Origin: Sialis fuliginosa
Taxonomy: Eukaryota > Arthropoda > Insecta > Megaloptera > Sialidae
Direction of reading: 5' to 3'
Length of the DNA stretch: 64,000 nucleotides
Assembly (NCBI GenBank): GCA_961205875.1
Contig: OY540819.1
Coordinates: 8,558,501-8,622,500 of the forward strand
Under the pieces are notes generated by a model that saw nothing but the letters and a program-made list of their open reading frames with translations, had not been told where the DNA came from and searched no databases. Shown one piece after another: positions 3,691 through 62,200 of the stretch (the stretch's first letter is position 1; the number at the start of each line of letters is the position of its first letter). The translations under genes were made by a program, and so were the position numbers.

Positions 3691-3742
3691 AAAAAAATGT
3701 GGAACGCTTCACGATTTTGCGTGTCATCCTTGCGCAGGGGCC

Positions 3743-3782
<40 letters not shown>

Positions 3783-3799
3783 ACTGCCGAAGCAAGTAC
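3691..3799 (-). ncRNA. U6: U6 spliceosomal snRNA
   Basis: Read on the minus strand, 3799 to 3698 matches U6 snRNA along its whole length and ends in a run of seven T at 3697-3691, the RNA polymerase III terminator. Recognisable parts in order are the 5' stem-loop with CTTCGGCA, the ATATACTAAAATTGGAACGA block, the ACAGAGA box, the AGC triad in GATTAGCATGG, and the 3' internal stem-loop ending GCGTTCCACA. The 5' stem is GTAC/GTAC, whereas fly has GTTC/GAAC and human GTGC/GCAC, so both sides changed together, as expected of a working RNA. A TATATATA box lies 24-31 bp upstream (3823-3830), the usual position for type 3 Pol III genes. I could not assign a PSE with confidence. Confidence 0.96.
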
Positions 3800-43200: not shown

Positions 43201-46200
43201 AGAAAATTCTAAAAATTTGGATTTCGACTATGTTCGCTTTTATATGTCGTTTTTTTGGTATCGCACACCTTTTTTTTGTATGTGGCTGTGTAGTTCATAA
43301 ACAGACAGACGAATTTTCGATTCAGGGAGTCTCAGTTAATTTTCGAGGCCTCCTTCGGCTATTATTAAGAAATTAAAATTGATAATTTAACATATAAGTT
43401 TAATAGTTAATATGTCAGCTTGGCGCGATCGAGCAGACTCCAGTTTTTTTTAAATATTGCTTACACCATTATCTTTAAGACTATCTAATGCCCTAAGACC
43501 TTCGAGACCGCCTTCGGCTATTATTAAGAAATTTAAATTGAAAATTTAACAAATAAGTTGAATAGTTAATATGTCAGCTTGGCGCGATCGAGCAGACTCC
43601 AGTTTTTTTAAATATAGCTTACACCATTATCTTTAAGACTATCTAATGCCCTAAGACCTTCGAGACCGCCTTCGGCTATTATTAAGAAATTTAAATTGAA
43701 AATTTAACAAATAAGTTGAATAGTTAATATGTCAGCTTGGCGCGATCGAGCAGACTCCAGTTTTTTTTTTAAATATAGCTTACACCATTATCTTTAAGAC
43801 TATCTAATGCCCGAAGACCTTCAAAAAAGTGGTGTGTGCTGGGGTACAGACCCAATTTTTCTTTTGTATTTTTTCCCGCTGAACACGAATCCGTCGTCAT
43901 AATTGGGGGGTGATAAACAAAATCACGAGAAACCGGTTTTTATCGTTTTTTTTTGGGTTTTCTCGTGATTTTGTTCATCAACCCCCAATTATGACAAGAG
44001 ATTCGTGTTCAGCGGGAAAAATACAAAAGAAAAGCTGGGTCTGTACCCCAGCACAGACCACTTTTTTTTGTAGACCTGTGTTATTACCTTCCACAATAAA
44101 TATTCTTGTAAATCCCAATGTACAGCACTTATCACTAAACACAGTCCAAAACACTAACCATGGAGCAACAAACCGAACCACTTTAAAGTAACTTTTCATT
44201 CACACAGAATCTGTTAACAATACCTGAAACAGAACGGTTGTAAGTTTCTAACAATTAATATTCGAGTGAAAAACAAAAGTTTTATGTCAGACGCGGTTCT
44301 GCTCTGTTGGCCTCGACTACTTCACTTACACATGTTCGGAGTTATGTTTGCACGTTGCGTTATTATTGTTATTATTATTTATATATTGCTAAACGGTGTA
44401 AGCGAACGCCAGTGGCAGCTGGGGTATAATAGACATGATGCCTTATTAAAAAAACTATTCTATGATGATCTTACATATATTAAATAATTATTTCTGCAGA
44501 AAATAAAGGTTCAATCATTAAAATTGACTCTTTTAAAACTAATTTTGAATTTGACGCCAAAACGTAAACACTCATTGTCAACAATAATAAATCCTTGTTC
44601 CATCGCTATCGGCTTTAGTTTTGGTAACACAAAACCGAGCAAATTGATAATTTAAAACCACAAAATAATTTATAAACAATGCAGATATTAATGAAATAAA
44701 AATTATGTTTATTTAGGCGTTATGTCATTCACTCTGATTGGTGTTCCATCTAACATGGCGGATTGCTGTATTTTGTGTTTTTATTTTAACAAAAATTATA
44801 TTAATCTCGCTTTTAATATAAAAATAAATACATTTTTTAGAATCTTTATAACCTATTTTATTATTTAAAATCATAATTTCAGTGATACTTTGTTAGTGGC
44901 ATCGTGCCTACTGTCGATTTTGAAAAGTTGTCATGTTCTCAAATCAAAAGTTTGCAGGAAACGAAAAAAAACATTCTACTGGTGTGATATTTTCATATTT
45001 GCTGGTAGTGGTAACCATTTTTGAAAATTAGATACGAGACAGAGACGATATCAACTTTATAAGTCTCGTCGAGAGTCCTGGAAATCGTACATATCATAAC
45101 CTTGACATTTGCGCGATAAATACAATCAGCGACTTAAGTTCTGCCAAATGTACCTCATAAAATGTATAGCATTTACATTATTATACATTTATTACCACTG
45201 CTTTAAAATATCAAACAATTTCATAACAATTTGACACCTAGCAGATAGCGTTAGCTGGAAACTAATTTTCATTTGCACTCAAGCAAATTCTTTATAATAC
45301 CGCGTATAAGTGTAGAGCAAAAAAAGAGGTAATTATTATTTGTAAGAGAGTGTACAGCAAAAAAGCAAAAAAAGGTATTTACAATTGAAAAATTTTCTAA
45401 CTAATTTAAATTACTTTTCTTACTCATTTTAGTCAGTAGTCAGAAACATCGATGACAACCTAAATATTATTATCTGGCCCGCCTGCACTGGTTTCCCATT
45501 ACACGAAACAAAACTATCGCGTTTGTATAATGGTGTAAATCAGTTTAATATTATTATTATATGGGAAGTCTGTTTCATGTGAAATATTTATGTTTGGAAT
45601 TAAATTTAGTGGGTATTAAGGTAAAGGTTACCGTGAATAAAATTGAATACAATAAAATCTGTGTCGATAATTATATTGCTATTAAAGTTAATGATGTATT
45701 AATATGTTATGGGATTGCAAAAATTAAAAATCATTGTAATGATATTAAATTTCAATAGCATAAAAATTGATTAAAACATGACAATGATATTAATTTGATA
45801 TACTTTCTATCAAATTAAATAAAAAAATATAATTATATACAGGCTGATTTACAACGAATTTAAATAACTTTTATAGTGGATCGGGTGTATTAAAATTTTT
45901 TTTTTTTTTTAAAGAATATGTCTGAAAATAAATTCTTCGCGAGGGAGCTGCAACCTCTCAAAAACTAGTTTTATCCATTATCTGGAGAACTCATTGTCAA
46001 AATTAGTACGTAATTTAATATTAATAAGTGCTATCAATTATTAATATCTACCATTAATTATTTAGACCAAAAATGATGTGGGAAATGACCCCTCCCCCAT
46101 ATAAAATAGTCTGCGTATTTTTATACAATGAATATAAATAATATATAAAATAATTGAAGTTTGAAAATAAAATAACATCAATATTTATGAGTTAAGTTTT

Positions 46201-53157: not shown

Positions 53158-54737
53158 CAATAAATCGGAAATAACATTATTATTAAAGGTTACCTTTTTA
53201 TTCATATCTAATCTTATATTGCACCAAAAAAGTTGCAGTGATTGTATATATTATTAATTATAATTAACAAACTAACAATAGACTGCAATGCCCCAATGAT
53301 TGAGATTCTTCGAGTTAGTTATACGAGTACATGCATATGTAGATTTCATTCTTTAATAAATATTATTAAAGTAGCAACGGTGTAAAACTAGATTCGAAAA
53401 CTATAATTAAATTAATTATTTGATAAAATCTTGGGTTCAGCAAACTTTTTTTTGGAATATAATTATTCCTAGGAATATTCTACTATAATTGTATTTAATT
53501 AGTCATTTTTAATTTTTGTATTTTTGTATGTTTGTAAACAAAAAAGTTGTAGTAAATAAAAAAAATATTTAAAATTGTTATTTATTCATATAATACAATC
53601 TTTAAGGCTTCCGCGGTGATCCTTGTAATATGTAAATACACCTTGAACATTTTTTTAAATGTCAACAAAAACAACCTTGTATGGCAAAATCTTCGAATTA
53701 ATCGATTTCCATTCCTTGTGTTTTTCAAAATATCAATTTTCAAACGTCATTTTTCCGAAAACCGCTGATTTTAGAGATATGGTATGTTTTACAAAAAGTG
53801 TTCAGAATTTACCGTACAATTCAAAAATGGCATAATATTTAATGTTCCATTAAAAAAATCAATGATGACTGCATATGTTCTTCTTGAGACACCTGTATAC
53901 AATTTTCTTATGTCAAAAAATCCGCAACTAAAAATACTAATCGACGTGTCCGAGCGTTTTTCCACAAAATAATTACCTGAATTTTAAGCGAATTTGTTCA
54001 TTTCATCATGAAATAAGAAGAAAAATTAAAAATTTGCTGACAAAAAATTGAATTTTTTTTCGTTCTCTAGGTACTATAAAAAACATGTTTGGCTTCTTGT
54101 TAATTTCGTATTTTATCATGCAAATAGGTAGATATAAAATGATCATGACTATTAACAAAAATGTTCACTTTATTGCTAATTCCAGTATCATTAACAAGTC
54201 CAGTGCAGAATAAAGAACTGTCAGTTTTTGCAATGTTTTCTGACAGCCTGAAATATCGCTGATGAGCAAATTACAGTTGTTATAAATTACTACACCAGAT
54301 TAGTTTCTACGGTAGCTAGCTTATAATTGAGTGTTTTATCGTAAGTTATAAGCTATAGAACTTAACCCTTTCTATGTTAAATGTACATGATTATTAATAT
54401 TCTTGATAACGAGATTTGTTCAACTACTTTTAAATATGTTTATTCTAATAATATTGGTGTTTTTATTTATAGATTATAATACATAATTTAGGCAGTGGCG
54501 AAGCGTCCATGGAAGCAAGGGAAGCAGTGTAATAAATAATTTAAAAATATTATTAGAATATTCATCTTTATGCGCAACCCAAACATTCTAATGAAAAGTC
54601 AAAAATAACATTTAATATTAATTTATACGTTCAATTATAAAACTATAATACCTCTACGTCTTATTTTCTTGTATTTTAGTCGATATTTGTATGACGAGTT
54701 GAAGTTCAGTGCAGGAAATTTCACAAATTTTTTTTGC

Positions 54738-55321
54738 ATTTTTGATTTCGTTAAAAGTATGTTTATTGTATAGAAAATGACGCGAAAAGTTGAAATTTTC
54801 AAACCGCAGGTCTGTATCTTAAACCGTTCTCGAAATATAACCTCTCAAAGTTTCATTTTTTTCAAAATTTTGAAGAAAAATGGCCCTAACTTTTGAACGC
54901 GTGGTCGGAATTGATTTTAGTTGACGGATTTATAATCAGCGTGTCAAAATCTATATAATGACATATATAATACCTTAAAACTCGAATAAAAAAAATTCGC
55001 GAAAAATCGAAAAAATTCAATATTCAATTTCAATTCAATAAAAAAATGTCGATTTTTGACCAAATTTTTTTTGTCGGATTTTAAATTATTATACATGTCA
55101 TTATATAGATTTTGACACGCTGATTACAAATCCGCCAACTAAAATCAAATCCGACCACGCGTTCAAAAGTTATGGCCTTTTTTCTCAAAAAATTTGAAAA
55201 AACTAAAACTTTGAGAGGCTATATCTCGAGAACGTTTTGAGATACAGACCTGCGGTTTGAAAATTTCAACTTTTCACGTCATTTTCTATACAATAAATAT
55301 ACTTTTAACGAAATCAAAAAT
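54738..55321. mobile_element. Large fold-back element, arms of about 270 bp
   Basis: The left arm (54738 to about 55000) and right arm (about 55060 to 55321) are inverted copies with scattered mismatches. Matching blocks include TTGATTTCGTTAAAAGTATG, AAACCGCAGGTCTGTATC and GACCACGCGTTCAAAAGTTA-type sequence. The loop is AT-rich and about 60 bp. Confidence 0.85.
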
Positions 55322-56011
55322 TCATTATTGGAACTGCAGAAATAAGCTACAACTACACACTAAAATAACCCCTGGTGTTATCCTTAAAAATGCAATTAAT
55401 CCTTATAAAAAATTAAAAACGATTAAATCTTTTGTAGCATCTATTCTTGAATTTTCAGTAAAATATTTATTTTTAAACTTTTAAAACAGAATAATTGCGT
55501 TAAATCAAATTATAACAAAAATACCAGCACGTTGACATTCATTTCGTCAGTTAAAAAAACTGTGTATAATTAATAAATTATAAACACTAATTAAACACGA
55601 AATCTGAAATATTTTTTGATAAAAGAGTAACCGCGGTTCCCAAGATTCGACACAGGCAGCAGCCAGCCTGAATGACGACGCCATAGTACGCGCAGTGTCC
55701 GCTAGATGCAGACACGCTCGCGTACCGTTCTTCGCCGAAGTCAGTAACCCTGACCAAGGTTAGGGCTCCACTCTTCGCGCGTACGAGGTTCCAGTGTGCG
55801 TGGCCAGATAACACACAGATGTGTCTATAGTTGTTGAGCTCAAGATTAAAATTTAGTGTACATAAACTATACATTTGCTGTAGTTTGTTTTAATTAATAT
55901 TTAATTTTTTTCTAAAAAACTATAATTATTGTTTTTATTTTATTTTTAAATTTGTATAGCCAAGTATTGTTAATTTCCTGAATTCATTCTAACTATTTTT
56001 GCCTTAGACTA

Positions 56012-56826: not shown

Positions 56827-58123
56827 AAAATTCTATTAATCAAAACAAAAGTTAACAGAAGATATTTATTTTATATTCCAAAGAAGATATACAACACAAG
56901 GTTTATTTTCAGTATTACGTATAAGAATGTCCCGGGACACCCATAACAAATATTCTAGACGTAGTATACATGTCATCTACAAGTAGATAGTCTTGTCTCG
57001 CCTCTTGATAGCATTTTAAAGCCAAAATGATTAATTCTGTATAAAGTATAATGTGGCAAATACAAAAAATATTAATGAGGTATTTAATTTCTAATTCATT
57101 CACTATTTTTAATGAATGTATTGATAAATAGGTATAAATTTGTATAAATTTGTATAAATTTGAAAAAGGCCCGGGCAAAATAACATTTCTGGGCCTCCAT
57201 ACCCCTCCATTTCGCGTATGTAAGGAAATTTCAAACATATTCCGTTTTATCCTTATCATTTTCGGGGCCCTCCTAGCCCCCCTTCTATCTGAGCCTGTAT
57301 CTGTATATAATAAAAATATTAACCCAATATATCAACTTTTCTGCACTAGCTGTAAATTAAATTTCAGAATATTTAAAAAAAATAACCGAAAACTACCAAT
57401 ATTCAGACACGTTCAAAATAACACCAAATACGGAGAACCGAACGTTGCACGCATGCATCATTGTGCACACAAAGAAAGTGCAACTGGGGTCATTTGCATA
57501 CAATAATGCAGTCACCGGCGTCGCGTGGGAGTGTGCTAATGTGTCTGTCAGAGAACGGGCACAAACCGCGGCCGGGTTCACGTACTAGAAACTAATTTTG
57601 TTGTGATCGGTACAAGACTTCGGCAAACGTGGATTTACTTTATAAGGGATGAGATGTATTCATTTATAGTAAAAGGTTGTAGTTTTGGTTTGTTTGTGTA
57701 GCAAATAAAGGCTAGGGATAAATAAACGAAGTCGTATAGAAATTGAGAGTGATATGAAAATAATAACAGTAAGAATCGATTTTCAGATAGTTGTCATTAG
57801 ATATTAAAAAAGTTTATGTATAAATAGGTAAACATTTAAAGCACACAATTTAAATTATAATTATCCCAATTGTATTCAAAAACAGTGTATATGTATAAAA
57901 GTTTTTGTTATGAAAATTTGTCTTTATACATTTACCTATAACTTGAACTATTTTAAAGTAATCATGGTTGGACAGAAACCATTATTTAGAGCATTAATGT
58001 CCGGTATTATAAAGGAGCTAGCAAAATTTGCTAGCTAGCAATTACTTTCAAATGGGGTATTAATTCTGTACTAGTATCTATGAATTACTAAACTAAAAAT
58101 ACACCTTAACCACAAAAATTAAT

Positions 58124-58175
58124 GTCACTCGACACGTGTTTCGACTTCACAAGAAGTCCTCATCAGGAGCCTAAC
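58124..58175 (-). ncRNA. Hammerhead ribozyme-like motif, mirror copy on the minus strand
   Basis: Because the palindrome is perfect, the minus strand carries the identical motif: CTGATGA core at 58166-58160, GAAA at 58142-58139, and the GTC cleavage triplet ending at 58131. In a plus-strand transcript the two arms would pair fully and hide the ribozyme fold. Confidence 0.75.
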
Positions 58176-58196
58176 GATTCCAGACAGTCTGGAATC

Positions 58197-58248
58197 GTTA
58201 GGCTCCTGATGAGGACTTCTTGTGAAGTCGAAACACGTGTCGAGTGAC
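58197..58248 (+). ncRNA. Hammerhead ribozyme-like motif, minimal type I, plus-strand copy
   Basis: CTGATGA (58206-58212) is followed by helix II, G-GACTTC/GAAGTC-closing around a TTGT loop with one bulged G (58213-58229), and then GAAA (58230-58233). Helix III is ACAC/GTGT (58233-58240) with no loop, so it would have to form between two molecules, as in known dimeric minimal hammerheads. The cleavage triplet is GTC (58239-58241). Helix I pairs CTC (58203-58205) with GAG (58242-58244), then, after an internal loop, GTTA with TGAC. All core nucleotides are present. Activity is not shown by sequence alone. Confidence 0.78.
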
Positions 58249-59049
58249 ATTAATTTTTGTGGTTAAGGTGTATTTTTAGTTTAGTGACTAAGAAACCACA
58301 GTTTCTCCGTTTTTCAAGTAAAAAAAAAAAAAAAAAAATCTATGAATTAGTTATGGAATTTAGAGCAGTGACACTTCAACTAATTGTAACACGGTTGGCA
58401 TCTTTCACCGTACAAAATAATTTTCATAATATCACCACTGTTTTAATACCGTTGGTATTTACCTACAACGCGTGCGCGAAACTTGTCAAAGTCTTCAACA
58501 AACTCCAAAAGAACTGTCATATAAGTTTGATATCTCACTTGCTAGCTAACAAATTTGCTAGCTCCTTTATAATAACGGACATAAATGTTCTATAGATTCC
58601 TAGTTGGATTTCATATAAAAACAATTGTGATATGTGAATGACTTCAGAGTGGTTTGTTGTATGACATTAAGTAGGTGTTGCTGAAGTGTAACAATCAAAA
58701 TTAAAAAAAACGAGGAAATTTCGAAATCTCATCAAGTAAATTCAAGACCTTTACAATTACACGCTTTGCTAATGCATTCAGGTAATCGTCTAGCCAACAA
58801 TAAGTATCGGAACATGTAATTTATTTATTTAACGCTAACTGTCCGTGTACAATCAGATTTCCTCAAGAAAACGCGCAGTTTCCGCCAAACCTGGAGGCTG
58901 TCGGAAACTATAAAAAACAGTGGTTTTCAATCAGTTTTTAACAAACTCTTCACATATAGGGTTCCGGGAAAAAATTTTGATCTAAAGTGATGATTGATAG
59001 ATCTGCATTTTTGCACAAATATCTCTAAAGATCGTTGTAGATCGTGATA

Positions 59050-59265
59050 GAGATTCAAAATTAAAATTGATAAATTAACAAATAAGTTGAATAGTTAATA
59101 TCTCAGTTTGGCGCGATCCTACAAACTCCAACTTTTTTTTTAAATATAGCTTACACCATTAACTTTAAGACTATCAAATGATCTAAGACCGTCGAGACCT
59201 CCTTCCCCTAGTATTAACAAATTAAAATTGATAAATTAACAAATAAGTTGAATAGTTAATATTTC
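59050..59265 (+). repeat. Diverged copies of the 159-bp satellite
   Basis: AATAAGTTGAATAGTTAATA occurs twice (about 59080 and 59244), and GTTTGGCGCGATCCTAC, CACCATTAACTTTAAGACTA and GACCTCCTTCCCCTAGTATT match the 43.3-43.8 kb unit with more mismatches. There are about 1.3 units, in the same orientation as the main array 15 kb away. Confidence 0.8.
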
Positions 59266-62200
59266 CGTATATCTTCTCATATTTTTTTAACGACTCAGAT
59301 GAAAAAAATTCATAGAACTTAATTTATACTAGACTACAATACGAATAAAATGAGCTCAATTTGAACTATCTACCACTAATATAACCGGAGATACATATGT
59401 CGTCGTGAAATTGGGTCTCCGTACATCACAAGTATATGTGAGCATTCTATAGGTCGTAATTTAATTTACCTGGCCTGGCGCCTTGGGCGGTCGCCCTGGT
59501 TCGCCCCCCTCCCTAAATCCGGCGCTGATTATAATAAAATTAAATTTAAATGTATCGGGTGTTAAATTAAAAAAATGTATTTTTTTAAACTTGAAAATTT
59601 CAATAGATTTTTGACATTATTCGTCCTAGGTAAAAATACTGATGCTTTACCCATTATTTGATATTTTTACCTCTATAATAATAAAGTTGGCAATGATCCT
59701 TTCCCACGATTACGAAAATTAGTCAATAATCAAAATGACTCATCGTATGTTAATTTTTAAATGCGTATATTCGAATACTAATTTAAAATTACTTCATTCA
59801 AGGTCGTGCAATATAAAAAACACATATAACTCATTAAGAAAAAAATAAATGAATATAAATAAACAAACACATATCACCTACAATACTTTTAAACAATGCA
59901 CATTATTATGTATCAAAGTAAATATATCACAATCATTCACATAATGACCACCGCGGAAGTCCTATAACTGTAAAAATAATGTTTCATAATTACTGGGTGA
60001 ATGCACATAGTTCATGTGCTTAATAAATATTTATTATTATTGTGATTTTAATTGTTAATAGTCACAAATAAATAAATGCACCTAAACCCACACGTGTTAG
60101 TCACCTTGCGAGTGTCCTTAAGGGGATATGTGTAGAGTAATTAAAATGTTTTGTAATTTGCAGCTGTGTGTGTGTCGTCAGAAATTGTTGTAGGGGTGAT
60201 TCAGTGATGTCATGACAAATAATGTTTTTTTCCCAAAGATGTTGAATATATTATATGTATTTATATGAAGCATTCTACGTCAATATATCCAGTAAAATAT
60301 TAATTCGATCTATGTACGTAGGGTAAAACTATACATATTGCGGTGAGTACCATTAAAATTCATTTTTGTCAGACACTTTATACTATATACCAAATTGGTT
60401 AAAATATGTAGAAACTTATTATAACACAATAAAACCACCTTGTATAAAATAAAACTTAATTTCTGTCACATTATCTAAATATCCGCCTGACTGCATATAA
60501 ATGTTGATGCAGATTTTTATTACGAGTAGCAAATAAAACGACTTGACCCCAACAATACCTTGAAAGCTGAGTCACACAAACAATTTATTACAAGATGAAT
60601 ACACTTGGGTTCTTTCTGAGCAAATTATCCGTGAAATTGTTCTCACCTTTTTGCAATAATTAATATTTGTAAATCAATTTTCATTATCTGAACCGTACAT
60701 AACACAAATTGATAAATCATTATTTATAAACGTAATTGCTGTTAAATGTTTTAATTCTGATGGCTTTTGTTACATGGATTAAAGTGGGACTTCCGGTATA
60801 AGTAAGACACAATTGTTATAATAAATTCTAACAACTAGGGCTGGTATCAGTTTAGTCTTCGGTATGTTGTAGTAGAACTAGACATTTTGCGTGTTTCGAA
60901 TTACCCACCAGAAATTGAAAAAGCATTGCGTCTGTTTTCGCCATATCTAAGAATTAATTAATGTATGTACTTCGAAATACTTGAGTCAGATTTTATGAAT
61001 AAAAAGCTAATTTGAATTTTCATTTGTATAACTGCATTCATTGATAATTTTTAATGTTCCAAAAACCATATTTAACAAAAAAAACCTCTCCAACAACCCC
61101 CTTCCCCACTTTTTTACTCGACACTCGAAAATTATCTGTATGCCGGTCCTGCTAATAACACATTATAAAATAACTCATAACAAAGATATAATGTGTTTTA
61201 TTCATTATTGAATAAAAATCACAGTTGCCATGGGAAACTAAAATATGTTGTCAATCAGCCAAAACTAAACTATCACTTTAAATTCAAAAACAAGTAAGCT
61301 TTGGAAAAAAGAATGGTTGATGTTTGATTTTATATTTATTAAAATGCGTTGCTTATTTTAAATTATTGTAAATATTATTATAATTATTTTATATTTAATG
61401 AAAATTATCATAATATAATAATGATTAATTTAATAATAATTAATTTTAATGTTGTTGCTTCCTTTCGATAAAACATTTCAATAGGTAATACGATATCCTG
61501 ATAATGTTACTATTGTATTACATGGTAATAAGTAATAAATATTAAAGGAAAATCATCTGTGGTTTCCAAATAACGGATGCAGGTTTATTTATCTCTAGCA
61601 TTTGTAAGGATACGCCTTTCTCGTTATTTTTCTTAGAATAATGAGAACAACAATTGATTCAAGATCAAATCGTAGGAGTGAAGAGGATTTTGTATTTCGC
61701 AATGTCATTTCCTTTGTTCGTGGATGCAGCATGACTTTATTTTTACATTTTGTTAATTTGTTATTTTAATTAAAAAGTTAATTTAACTTTATAAGAACAG
61801 TGACCATTTTTTGTTGTTGTGTGACTTGTTTTAGTTTTTTTTAAAATGAATATTTTGTCCTTTGTCTGCAATATTCTCTACAATTCATATGTAATTATAC
61901 CTTAATATATTAGACGTTATCACTCAAATTAATTATTAATTTCCTGAGTAACACTGGGTTCTAAAAGTTAGTAAATTATAAAAAATGTGTTTTTAGGTAT
62001 AATGAATTAATTTATTGCATATAAGGTGTACGCATAAAAAAGTTTACTTAAAGAAAAAAAAATGTATTACTTTACATAATCGTGAATGTCAAATAATATA
62101 AAAGAATAAAAAAATTTCGGATACTCAGCCAGAACAGAAGAGGCGAACATAAAGACAATAGATAATGGGACGTGAGTCGCACAAAAGATTAAAAAAAAAA

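What the first reader, a model, noticed from the sequence alone, without database searches (positions are those of the whole stretch)
58088..58337. Retroposed perfect palindrome carrying a hammerhead ribozyme in each arm
Seen: CTGATGA, a TTGT-capped stem, GAAA, a loop-less ACAC/GTGT helix and a GTC triplet in the order and spacing of a type I hammerhead, present on both strands because the 199-bp palindrome is perfect. Known: Penelope-like elements and retrozymes carry hammerheads of this minimal, helix-III-poor type that act as dimers. Inferred: this is a small member of that group. A plus-strand transcript would fold into a long hairpin that competes with the ribozyme, so transcription start and orientation could switch between a silent hairpin and a cleaving RNA.
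Basis: partly seen in the sequence, partly recalled or inferred. Interest (0 to 1): 0.85.

Follow-up and report, generated by a model that had tools for sequence, protein, structure and literature searches.

The report
Two-sided insertion of a Penelope retroelement
The perfect DNA palindrome is a recent insertion of the end of a Penelope-type jumping gene that seems to have been copied onto both strands of one cut site, and its many sister copies show how this little-understood class of element may insert itself.

Summary
Confirmed: window 58087-58285 is a perfect 99+1+99 palindrome with an A-run and a 12-bp target-site duplication; a related MITE (L081) keeps the empty site. Each arm carries a hammerhead-like motif, below the Rfam cut-off (17.7 versus 34 bits).

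The genome (392 Mb, unnamed) holds 1043 tail and 2403 hammerhead motif matches. The sense arm plus 35-nt tail is the 3' UTR of Penelope-like elements (PLEs) with an RT domain and a weak GIY-YIG match. Their UTR has TATAAATA at -31 and a TCAGT initiator; +1 is the first base of the arm.

The palindrome looks newly made at each insertion: 19 apex joints in 38 copies, arms truncated independently, one arm starting about 35 nt inside the other. Six of seven PLE inverted dimers (0.7-2.1 kb) show the same one-sided tail and 12-bp duplication.

Best reading: both target strands primed reverse transcription of one sense RNA from two internal start sites (both activities reported in vitro for an anole PLE), and the cDNA ends were joined. 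Hammerhead activity is untested.

The parts
58076..58087 (.). left copy of the 12-bp target-site duplication ATCTATGAATTA
   Evidence: exact direct repeat; single copy in the empty MITE of L081
58088..58185 (-). A arm: antisense cDNA copy of the PLE 3' UTR, started about 35 nt inside the tail end and running to the RNA 5' end
58186..58284 (+). S arm: sense copy of the PLE 3' UTR; 58186 corresponds to the initiator A (+1) of the autonomous PLE
58285..58319 (+). tail, present on this side only; 3' end of the PLE copies
   Evidence: 1043 genomic matches to its 24-mer, control 0; 40 of 41 scored copies have it on one side only
58320..58337 (+). run of A between tail and duplication, of variable length in young copies and absent in old ones; unexplained
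58338..58349 (.). right copy of the 12-bp target-site duplication
58202..58245 (+). hammerhead-like motif of the S arm (helix I 58202-58205 with 58242-58245, stem II 58214-58229, predicted cut after 58241, extra G at 58213)
58127..58170 (-). the same motif on the A arm, by symmetry
58276..58291 (+). predicted stem-loop whose loop holds the inner reverse-transcription start
57987..58592 (.). host MITE interrupted by the insertion (inverted ends 57987-58028 and 58551-58592)

Best explanation
The palindrome is a very young, non-coding insertion of a Penelope-like element (PLE). A PLE promoter just behind the stop codon (TATA at -31, TCAGT initiator) makes a sense RNA that starts at what is now the apex and carries the hammerhead-like motif, a stem-loop and the 35-nt tail (promoter inferred from sequence and from where cDNAs end). 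The PLE enzyme cuts the two target strands 12 bp apart (shown by the duplications). Each cut 3' end primes reverse transcription inside the same RNA species, one at the outer end of the tail, one about 35 nt further in, in the loop of a predicted stem-loop (start points shown; priming by both strands inferred, and both-strand cleavage and extension has been reported in vitro for an anole PLE). Both cDNAs run to the RNA 5' end or stop short, and their 3' ends are joined with little or no homology, giving an inverted dimer with a tail on one side (product shown, joining inferred). The palindrome is then a footprint of insertion and not a transcribed hairpin. The hammerhead is a usual PLE passenger, with no sign that it is used in this step.
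For: (1) Source: S arm plus tail follow a GIY-YIG coding end in L055 and L081 and RT/GIY-YIG ORFs in L084 and L086 (RVT_1 E 1.2e-12 in L084); 42 loci (capped list). (2) 5' end: in L086 TATAAATA starts 31 nt before A+1 of TATCAGTCTGG; 96 of 121 inner arm ends of 64 small copies lie at positions 1-12, and 21 of 46 in the tail-selected sample without L055 (my count). (3) Two starts: the A arm begins a median 35 nt inside the tail end, 52 of 53 copies at 25-40 nt (4 further two-armed copies with a shorter outer end were not in that count). (4) One-sided tail: 40 of 41 scored copies and 6 of 7 larger PLE dimers. (5) One event: 12-mer duplication with at most 1 mismatch in 43 of 64 small copies against 0.9 expected from shuffled partners, and around 6 of 7 dimers. 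(6) Apex: 19 different joints in 38 usable entries; the commonest recur in both old and young subfamilies. (7) Both arms share the variant type in 15 of 15 young copies, random pairing P 2e-7. (8) Of 20 two-armed tail-selected copies the A arm reaches further in 11 and the S arm in 6. (9) PMC11167929 parts 1-2: PAc cuts and extends both strands and starts at two adjacent internal sites that bound the 'tail'.
Against: No enzyme or RNA of this family was tested. 15 of 64 small copies show no duplication at up to 2 mismatches; 7 of 64 have an S arm only. One copy (L022) has a tail on both sides. A few old copies run 2-9 nt upstream of +1 (L037, L044, L045). Apex differences could partly come from later deletions at the centre of an unstable DNA palindrome. 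GIY-YIG matches of this family are under Pfam's cut-off (17.9 and 18.2 versus 22.6 bits). The sample favours full-length copies, and the seven dimers were picked, six because they looked head-to-head. The A-run of young copies is not explained.
Confidence: 0.82

Rival explanations
1. Self-priming: the RNA (antisense in the published proposal) or the first cDNA folds back at its 3' end and primes the second arm, so that one arm is copied from the other.
For: Proposed for head-to-head inverted Penelope copies with palindromic junctions in Adineta vaga (PMC3846280, passages). Explains matching variants in both arms.
Against: A fold-back arm cannot reach further inward than its template, yet both directions occur (A further in 11, S further in 6 of 20) and only the S arm has the tail. 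Inner ends sit at the start of a sense promoter, unexpected for an antisense 3' end. S-only copies with the same 5' end exist (L051, L071). The direction of the arm bias itself is not significant (P 0.33).
Confidence: 0.09
2. Inherited hairpin: a palindromic master gene is transcribed through both arms, and the hairpin RNA is copied by a LINE-like enzyme; apical differences come from template jumps or from later deletions of an unstable DNA palindrome.
For: Subfamily differences are the same in both arms; the window copy has a run of A; deletions around the apex occur.
Against: The PLE source has a single arm. Inverted dimers of 0.7-2.1 kb with unequal arms show the same ends. Some apices have added bases or bases from upstream of the PLE start (L037, L044, L045, L047, L050), which deletion does not give. 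The old subfamily has no run of A.
Confidence: 0.05
3. Small retrozyme with a regulatory switch: the hammerhead processes the RNA, and the hairpin form silences it.
For: Motif in both arms; the hairpin would be very stable; metazoan retrozymes and PLE hammerheads are known (PMC7229834, passages).
Against: No tandem unit in the window; mobilised RNA holds one arm; no cDNA end at the cut site in 121 (weak, about 2 expected if the 25 truncated ends were even); Rfam score under cut-off.
Confidence: 0.02

Closest known systems
Penelope elements of the rotifer Adineta vaga with inverted pLTRs and an optional 31-bp tail (PMC3846280; passages seen)
   Same: Head-to-head inverted pLTRs, tail at the 3' end of one of them, short TSD (8-10 bp in passages seen), palindromes at the junction, putative promoter motifs in the pLTR.
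   Different: Here the inserts are mostly short UTR-only pairs with over a thousand tail matches; TSD is typically 12 bp; the authors infer antisense self-priming, whereas this data set fits two-sided priming on a sense RNA.
PAc (Poseidon from Anolis carolinensis), an EN-positive PLE active in vitro (PMC11167929; parts 1 and 2 of 4 and passages seen)
   Same: Two adjacent internal RT start sites bounding the tail, one in a stem-loop; hammerhead in the pLTR; AT-rich targets; both target strands cut and extended in vitro.
   Different: The text seen treats tandem copies and uses 'inverted' only for a chemical block; in PAc the tail lies at the start of the ORF.
Metazoan non-LTR retrozymes (PMC7229834; passages seen)
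   Same: Small, non-autonomous, type I hammerhead, PLE often in the same genome.
   Different: Those are tandem repeats giving circular RNA; these are inverted pairs without tandem units. One locus, L091, has four 176-bp units in tandem.
Twin priming of LINE-1 (recalled, not looked up)
   Same: The second target strand primes on the same RNA and gives an inverted segment.
   Different: Here the second start is a fixed RNA site and both cDNAs cover the same region up to the RNA 5' end.

Membership tests
Penelope-like element, EN-positive (this as a non-autonomous copy) | ORF with reverse transcriptase in the elements that share the UTR and tail | tested here: met
   L084 ORF: RVT_1 48.4 bits, cut-off 29.6
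Penelope-like element, EN-positive (this as a non-autonomous copy) | C-terminal GIY-YIG endonuclease | tested here: inconclusive
   GIY-YIG 17.9 (L084) and 18.2 bits (L086), cut-off 22.6, at the expected C-terminal place; the young type also lies beside weak GIY-YIG hits, one in an 854-aa open frame at C9:1397543
Penelope-like element, EN-positive (this as a non-autonomous copy) | pLTR with an optional 30-40 bp tail at one end, inverted or tandem arrangement | tested here: met
   35-nt tail on one side in 40 of 41 scored copies; inverted PLE dimers
Type I hammerhead ribozyme | Conserved core CUGANGA / GAAA / cleavage triplet with helices I, II, III | tested here: met
   Letters in place, with one extra G before stem II and a loop-less helix III
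Type I hammerhead ribozyme | Score over the Rfam gathering threshold | tested here: not met
   17.7 versus 34 bits; no match at E 0.001 in the genome, though the control genomes rang in none
Type I hammerhead ribozyme | Self-cleavage | not testable with these tools
   Needs an in vitro assay
Metazoan retrozyme | Tandem repeat units each with a hammerhead | tested here: not met
   The window copy is an inverted pair; tandem units seen at one locus, L091
Metazoan retrozyme | Circular RNA | not testable with these tools
   No RNA data
microRNA precursor | Rfam microRNA family over its cut-off | tested here: not met
   Best mir-4529, 65 versus 88 bits, alike on both strands

The most novel reading that the evidence does not exclude
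The inverted dimer is a regular, perhaps the main, product of PLE retrotransposition. Two RT molecules of a protein dimer, each holding one cut target strand, start 35 nt apart and copy the same RNA one behind the other to its 5' end; the cDNA ends are then joined. UTR-only palindromes arise when both start in the 5' UTR of the PLE mRNA. This would be a distinct integration mode, two-sided target-primed reverse transcription.
Probability: 0.5. Interest if true: 0.8.

Novelty: new variant of a known kind. Interest (0 to 1): 0.64.

Why it matters
How Penelope-like elements integrate is open. A 2013 study inferred self-priming on an antisense template and asked for experiments to discriminate (PMC3846280); a 2024 study reported two internal start sites and action on both target strands in vitro (PMC11167929). 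This family, with many short inserts whose start sites, tail, joint and duplication can all be read from one 250-bp product, ties the two together and makes the question directly testable.

Tried and rejected
microRNA precursor: under cut-off and alike on both strands. LINE-driven poly(A) SINE: old copies have no run of A, and the tail is the 3' end of PLE copies. DNA transposon or Helitron: considered because of the palindrome and the small hairpin near the 3' end; dropped on the 12-bp duplication, the truncated arms and the PLE partner. Two separate insertions in opposite orientation: unlikely, since one duplication encloses the dimer. Hammerhead-cleaved RNA as template: no end at the cut site in 121; about 2 would be expected if the 25 truncated ends fell evenly (my arithmetic), so this is weak. 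Rfam Hammerhead_1 search of the genome: nothing at E 0.001, and nothing in the 14 control genomes, so uninformative. No PDB sequence relative of the L084 ORF at E 0.1. Literature: the six searches listed no title or abstract start that derives inverted PLE dimers from priming on both strands; most listed papers were not opened, most subscription papers are not held, and PMC8557442 was not held. PMC12910113: 12 passages only, nothing on inverted Penelope copies in them.

Full report
What is there. Window 58076-58349 holds one insertion: a 12-bp duplication, a 98-nt antisense (A) arm, a 99-nt sense (S) arm, a 35-nt tail, a run of A and the second duplication. The arms are complementary to the last base, so the insertion is young. 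It sits in a MITE with 42-bp inverted ends (57987-58028 and 58551-58592); a related MITE in L081 has the site uninterrupted.

Copies. The own genome is 392 Mb in 20 contigs. A DNA search scored 41 palindromic copies (40 candidates scored of 1708, so a lower bound), a group mostly 94-100% and one of about 88-93% identity to the window copy. Pattern counts at up to 3 mismatches, both strands: tail 24-mer 1043, hammerhead 24-mer 2403, hammerhead 34-mer 1959, the PLE stretch just upstream of the start 24-mer 219; each reversed control gave 0. That is about 2.3 hammerhead motifs per tail, and few copies that extend upstream of the start; the stretches decay at different rates, so this is rough.

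Source. L055 and L081 carry the end of a GIY-YIG coding region upstream of the S arm; one search listed 42 loci with that coding end (40 scored of 306 candidates). In L084 and L086 the ORF ends SLKRDKPF and stop. L084 has an RT domain (RVT_1 48.4 bits, cut-off 29.6); GIY-YIG is under its cut-off there (17.9) and in L086 (18.2 versus 22.6). In L086 TATAAATA follows the stop codon at once, and 31 nt after its first base comes A+1 of TATCAGTCTGG; the names TATA and initiator are recalled. Small copies start at or near this A: 96 of 121 inner arm ends of 64 copies are at positions 1-12. Centre bases of a palindrome can be given to either arm, so single positions are soft. In the tail-selected sample (30 loci, 27 rows after 3 repeats), which has no bias to full length, 21 of 46 inner ends are there, leaving out L055, a longer PLE copy (my count). 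Some old copies run 2-9 nt past it (L037, L044, L045). For the young type, one search found 14 exact sites with the upstream sequence, several beside weak GIY-YIG hits, one of them, C9:1397543(-), in an 854-aa open frame; I could not fetch it.

Two start sites. On the tail side copies end at position 132-141 (old) or 134 (young) of my rulers. On the other side the A arm starts a median 35 nt further in, 52 of 53 at 25-40 nt (L022 is the exception, and 4 two-armed copies with a shorter outer end were not in that count). The place is the loop of a stem-loop predicted in the old, young and L086 RNAs. Of 41 copies, all reach the tail end on one strand; on the other strand 40 stop by query position 210 (tail 199-232) and L022 reaches 233. 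Of seven fetched PLE loci (0.7-2.1 kb), six (L084, L086-L090) have the full tail on one side only and a 12-bp duplication around the whole dimer, five exact and one with a mismatch. L085 ends inside the tail and has no duplication. These seven were picked, six because they looked head-to-head.

The joint. One search lists 40 apex strings. Two are artefacts of the search expression (L013, L055) and that of L037 is cut short. The 38 left fall into 19 strings: six shared by 2-7 entries (25 entries, among them L014 and two places of L015 that are copies of one duplicated stretch) and 13 seen once. CCAGACTGG and CCAGACAGTCTGG each occur in old and young copies. They are what joining two ends CCAGACT with small trims, overlaps or additions would give. 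Arms of different copies differ by 2.0% (young) or 2.5% (old), arms within a copy by 0.5% (18 young) or 1.5% (20 old). A transmitted hairpin should have an apex as constant as its arms; later deletion at the centre of an unstable palindrome could add to the variety but not the extra bases.

Same RNA species. In 15 of 15 young copies that could be typed at two sites, both arms share the variant (6, 6 and 3 of three types; random pairing P 2e-7). So both arms come from one source type, perhaps one molecule.

Against self-priming. A fold-back arm cannot reach further inward than its template. Among 20 two-armed copies of the tail-selected sample the A arm reaches further by more than 10 nt in 11, the S arm in 6 (in L052, L057 and L063 the A arm is interrupted and resumes, by eye), and 3 are equal. 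The direction is not significant (P 0.33), but both occur, and only the S arm has the tail.

Duplications. A 12-mer with at most 1 mismatch flanks 43 of 64 small copies, against 0.9 expected from shuffled partners; 15 of 64 have none at up to 2 mismatches. Seven of 64 have an S arm only; one of these, L055, is the longer PLE copy.

Hammerhead. The motif is the same in my old and young rulers, while stretches beside it differ. The scan also finds a similar motif in another PLE family, L083, again with one extra nucleotide before stem II; one in L082 I saw by eye only. Rfam scores stay at 17.7 bits. Hammerheads in PLEs are known (PMC11167929, PMC7229834, as far as read). In PAc cleavage needed the protein and insertion did not need cleavage. 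No cDNA end at the cut site here agrees, weakly. That an extra nucleotide at this place is tolerated in a viroid hammerhead is recalled, not looked up.

Model and limits. Shown: the source, the start points, the one-sided tail, the joints, the duplications and the unequal arms. Inferred: that both target strands prime on one sense RNA, that this RNA starts at the initiator, and that one enzyme does both. The anole PLE work makes the enzymatic steps plausible. The run of A in young copies is not explained.

Noticed in passing
window 3693-3799, - strand: U6 spliceosomal RNA match, 117.9 bits, cut-off 44.
   Followed up: no
L091 110-816 (C1:39236050-39237150): Four tandem 176-bp units, each with the hammerhead motif joined to a foreign stretch; such an array could give retrozyme-like circular RNA.
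   Followed up: partly
window 57987-58592: MITE with 42-bp inverted ends that hosts the insertion; a related copy lies in L081.
   Followed up: partly
window 58320-58337 and young copies L001-L018: Run of A of variable length (one or two to over 30) between tail and duplication in young copies only; old copies have none. Poly(A) RNA end or polymerase slippage are open.
   Followed up: partly
L082 (C14:2855700-2860000): Another PLE family with RT domain as a head-to-head inverted dimer, ORFs of 527 and 642 aa, beside TA-rich sequence.
   Followed up: partly
L083 (C2:18695300-18699000): A further PLE family with facing 3' ends and a hammerhead-like motif with a 7-bp stem II in both copies.
   Followed up: partly
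window 43342-43822 and 59058-59292: 158-bp tandem array (3 copies) and a related single copy about 15 kb away.
   Followed up: no
window 54735-55324: Inverted repeat, arms 276 nt, 90% complementary, 38 nt apart; not checked for a PLE or MITE origin.
   Followed up: no
L022 (C2:1384514-1384744): A copy with an old-type A arm including tail and a young-type S arm with tail; either a two-tailed mixed insertion or one insertion into another.
   Followed up: no
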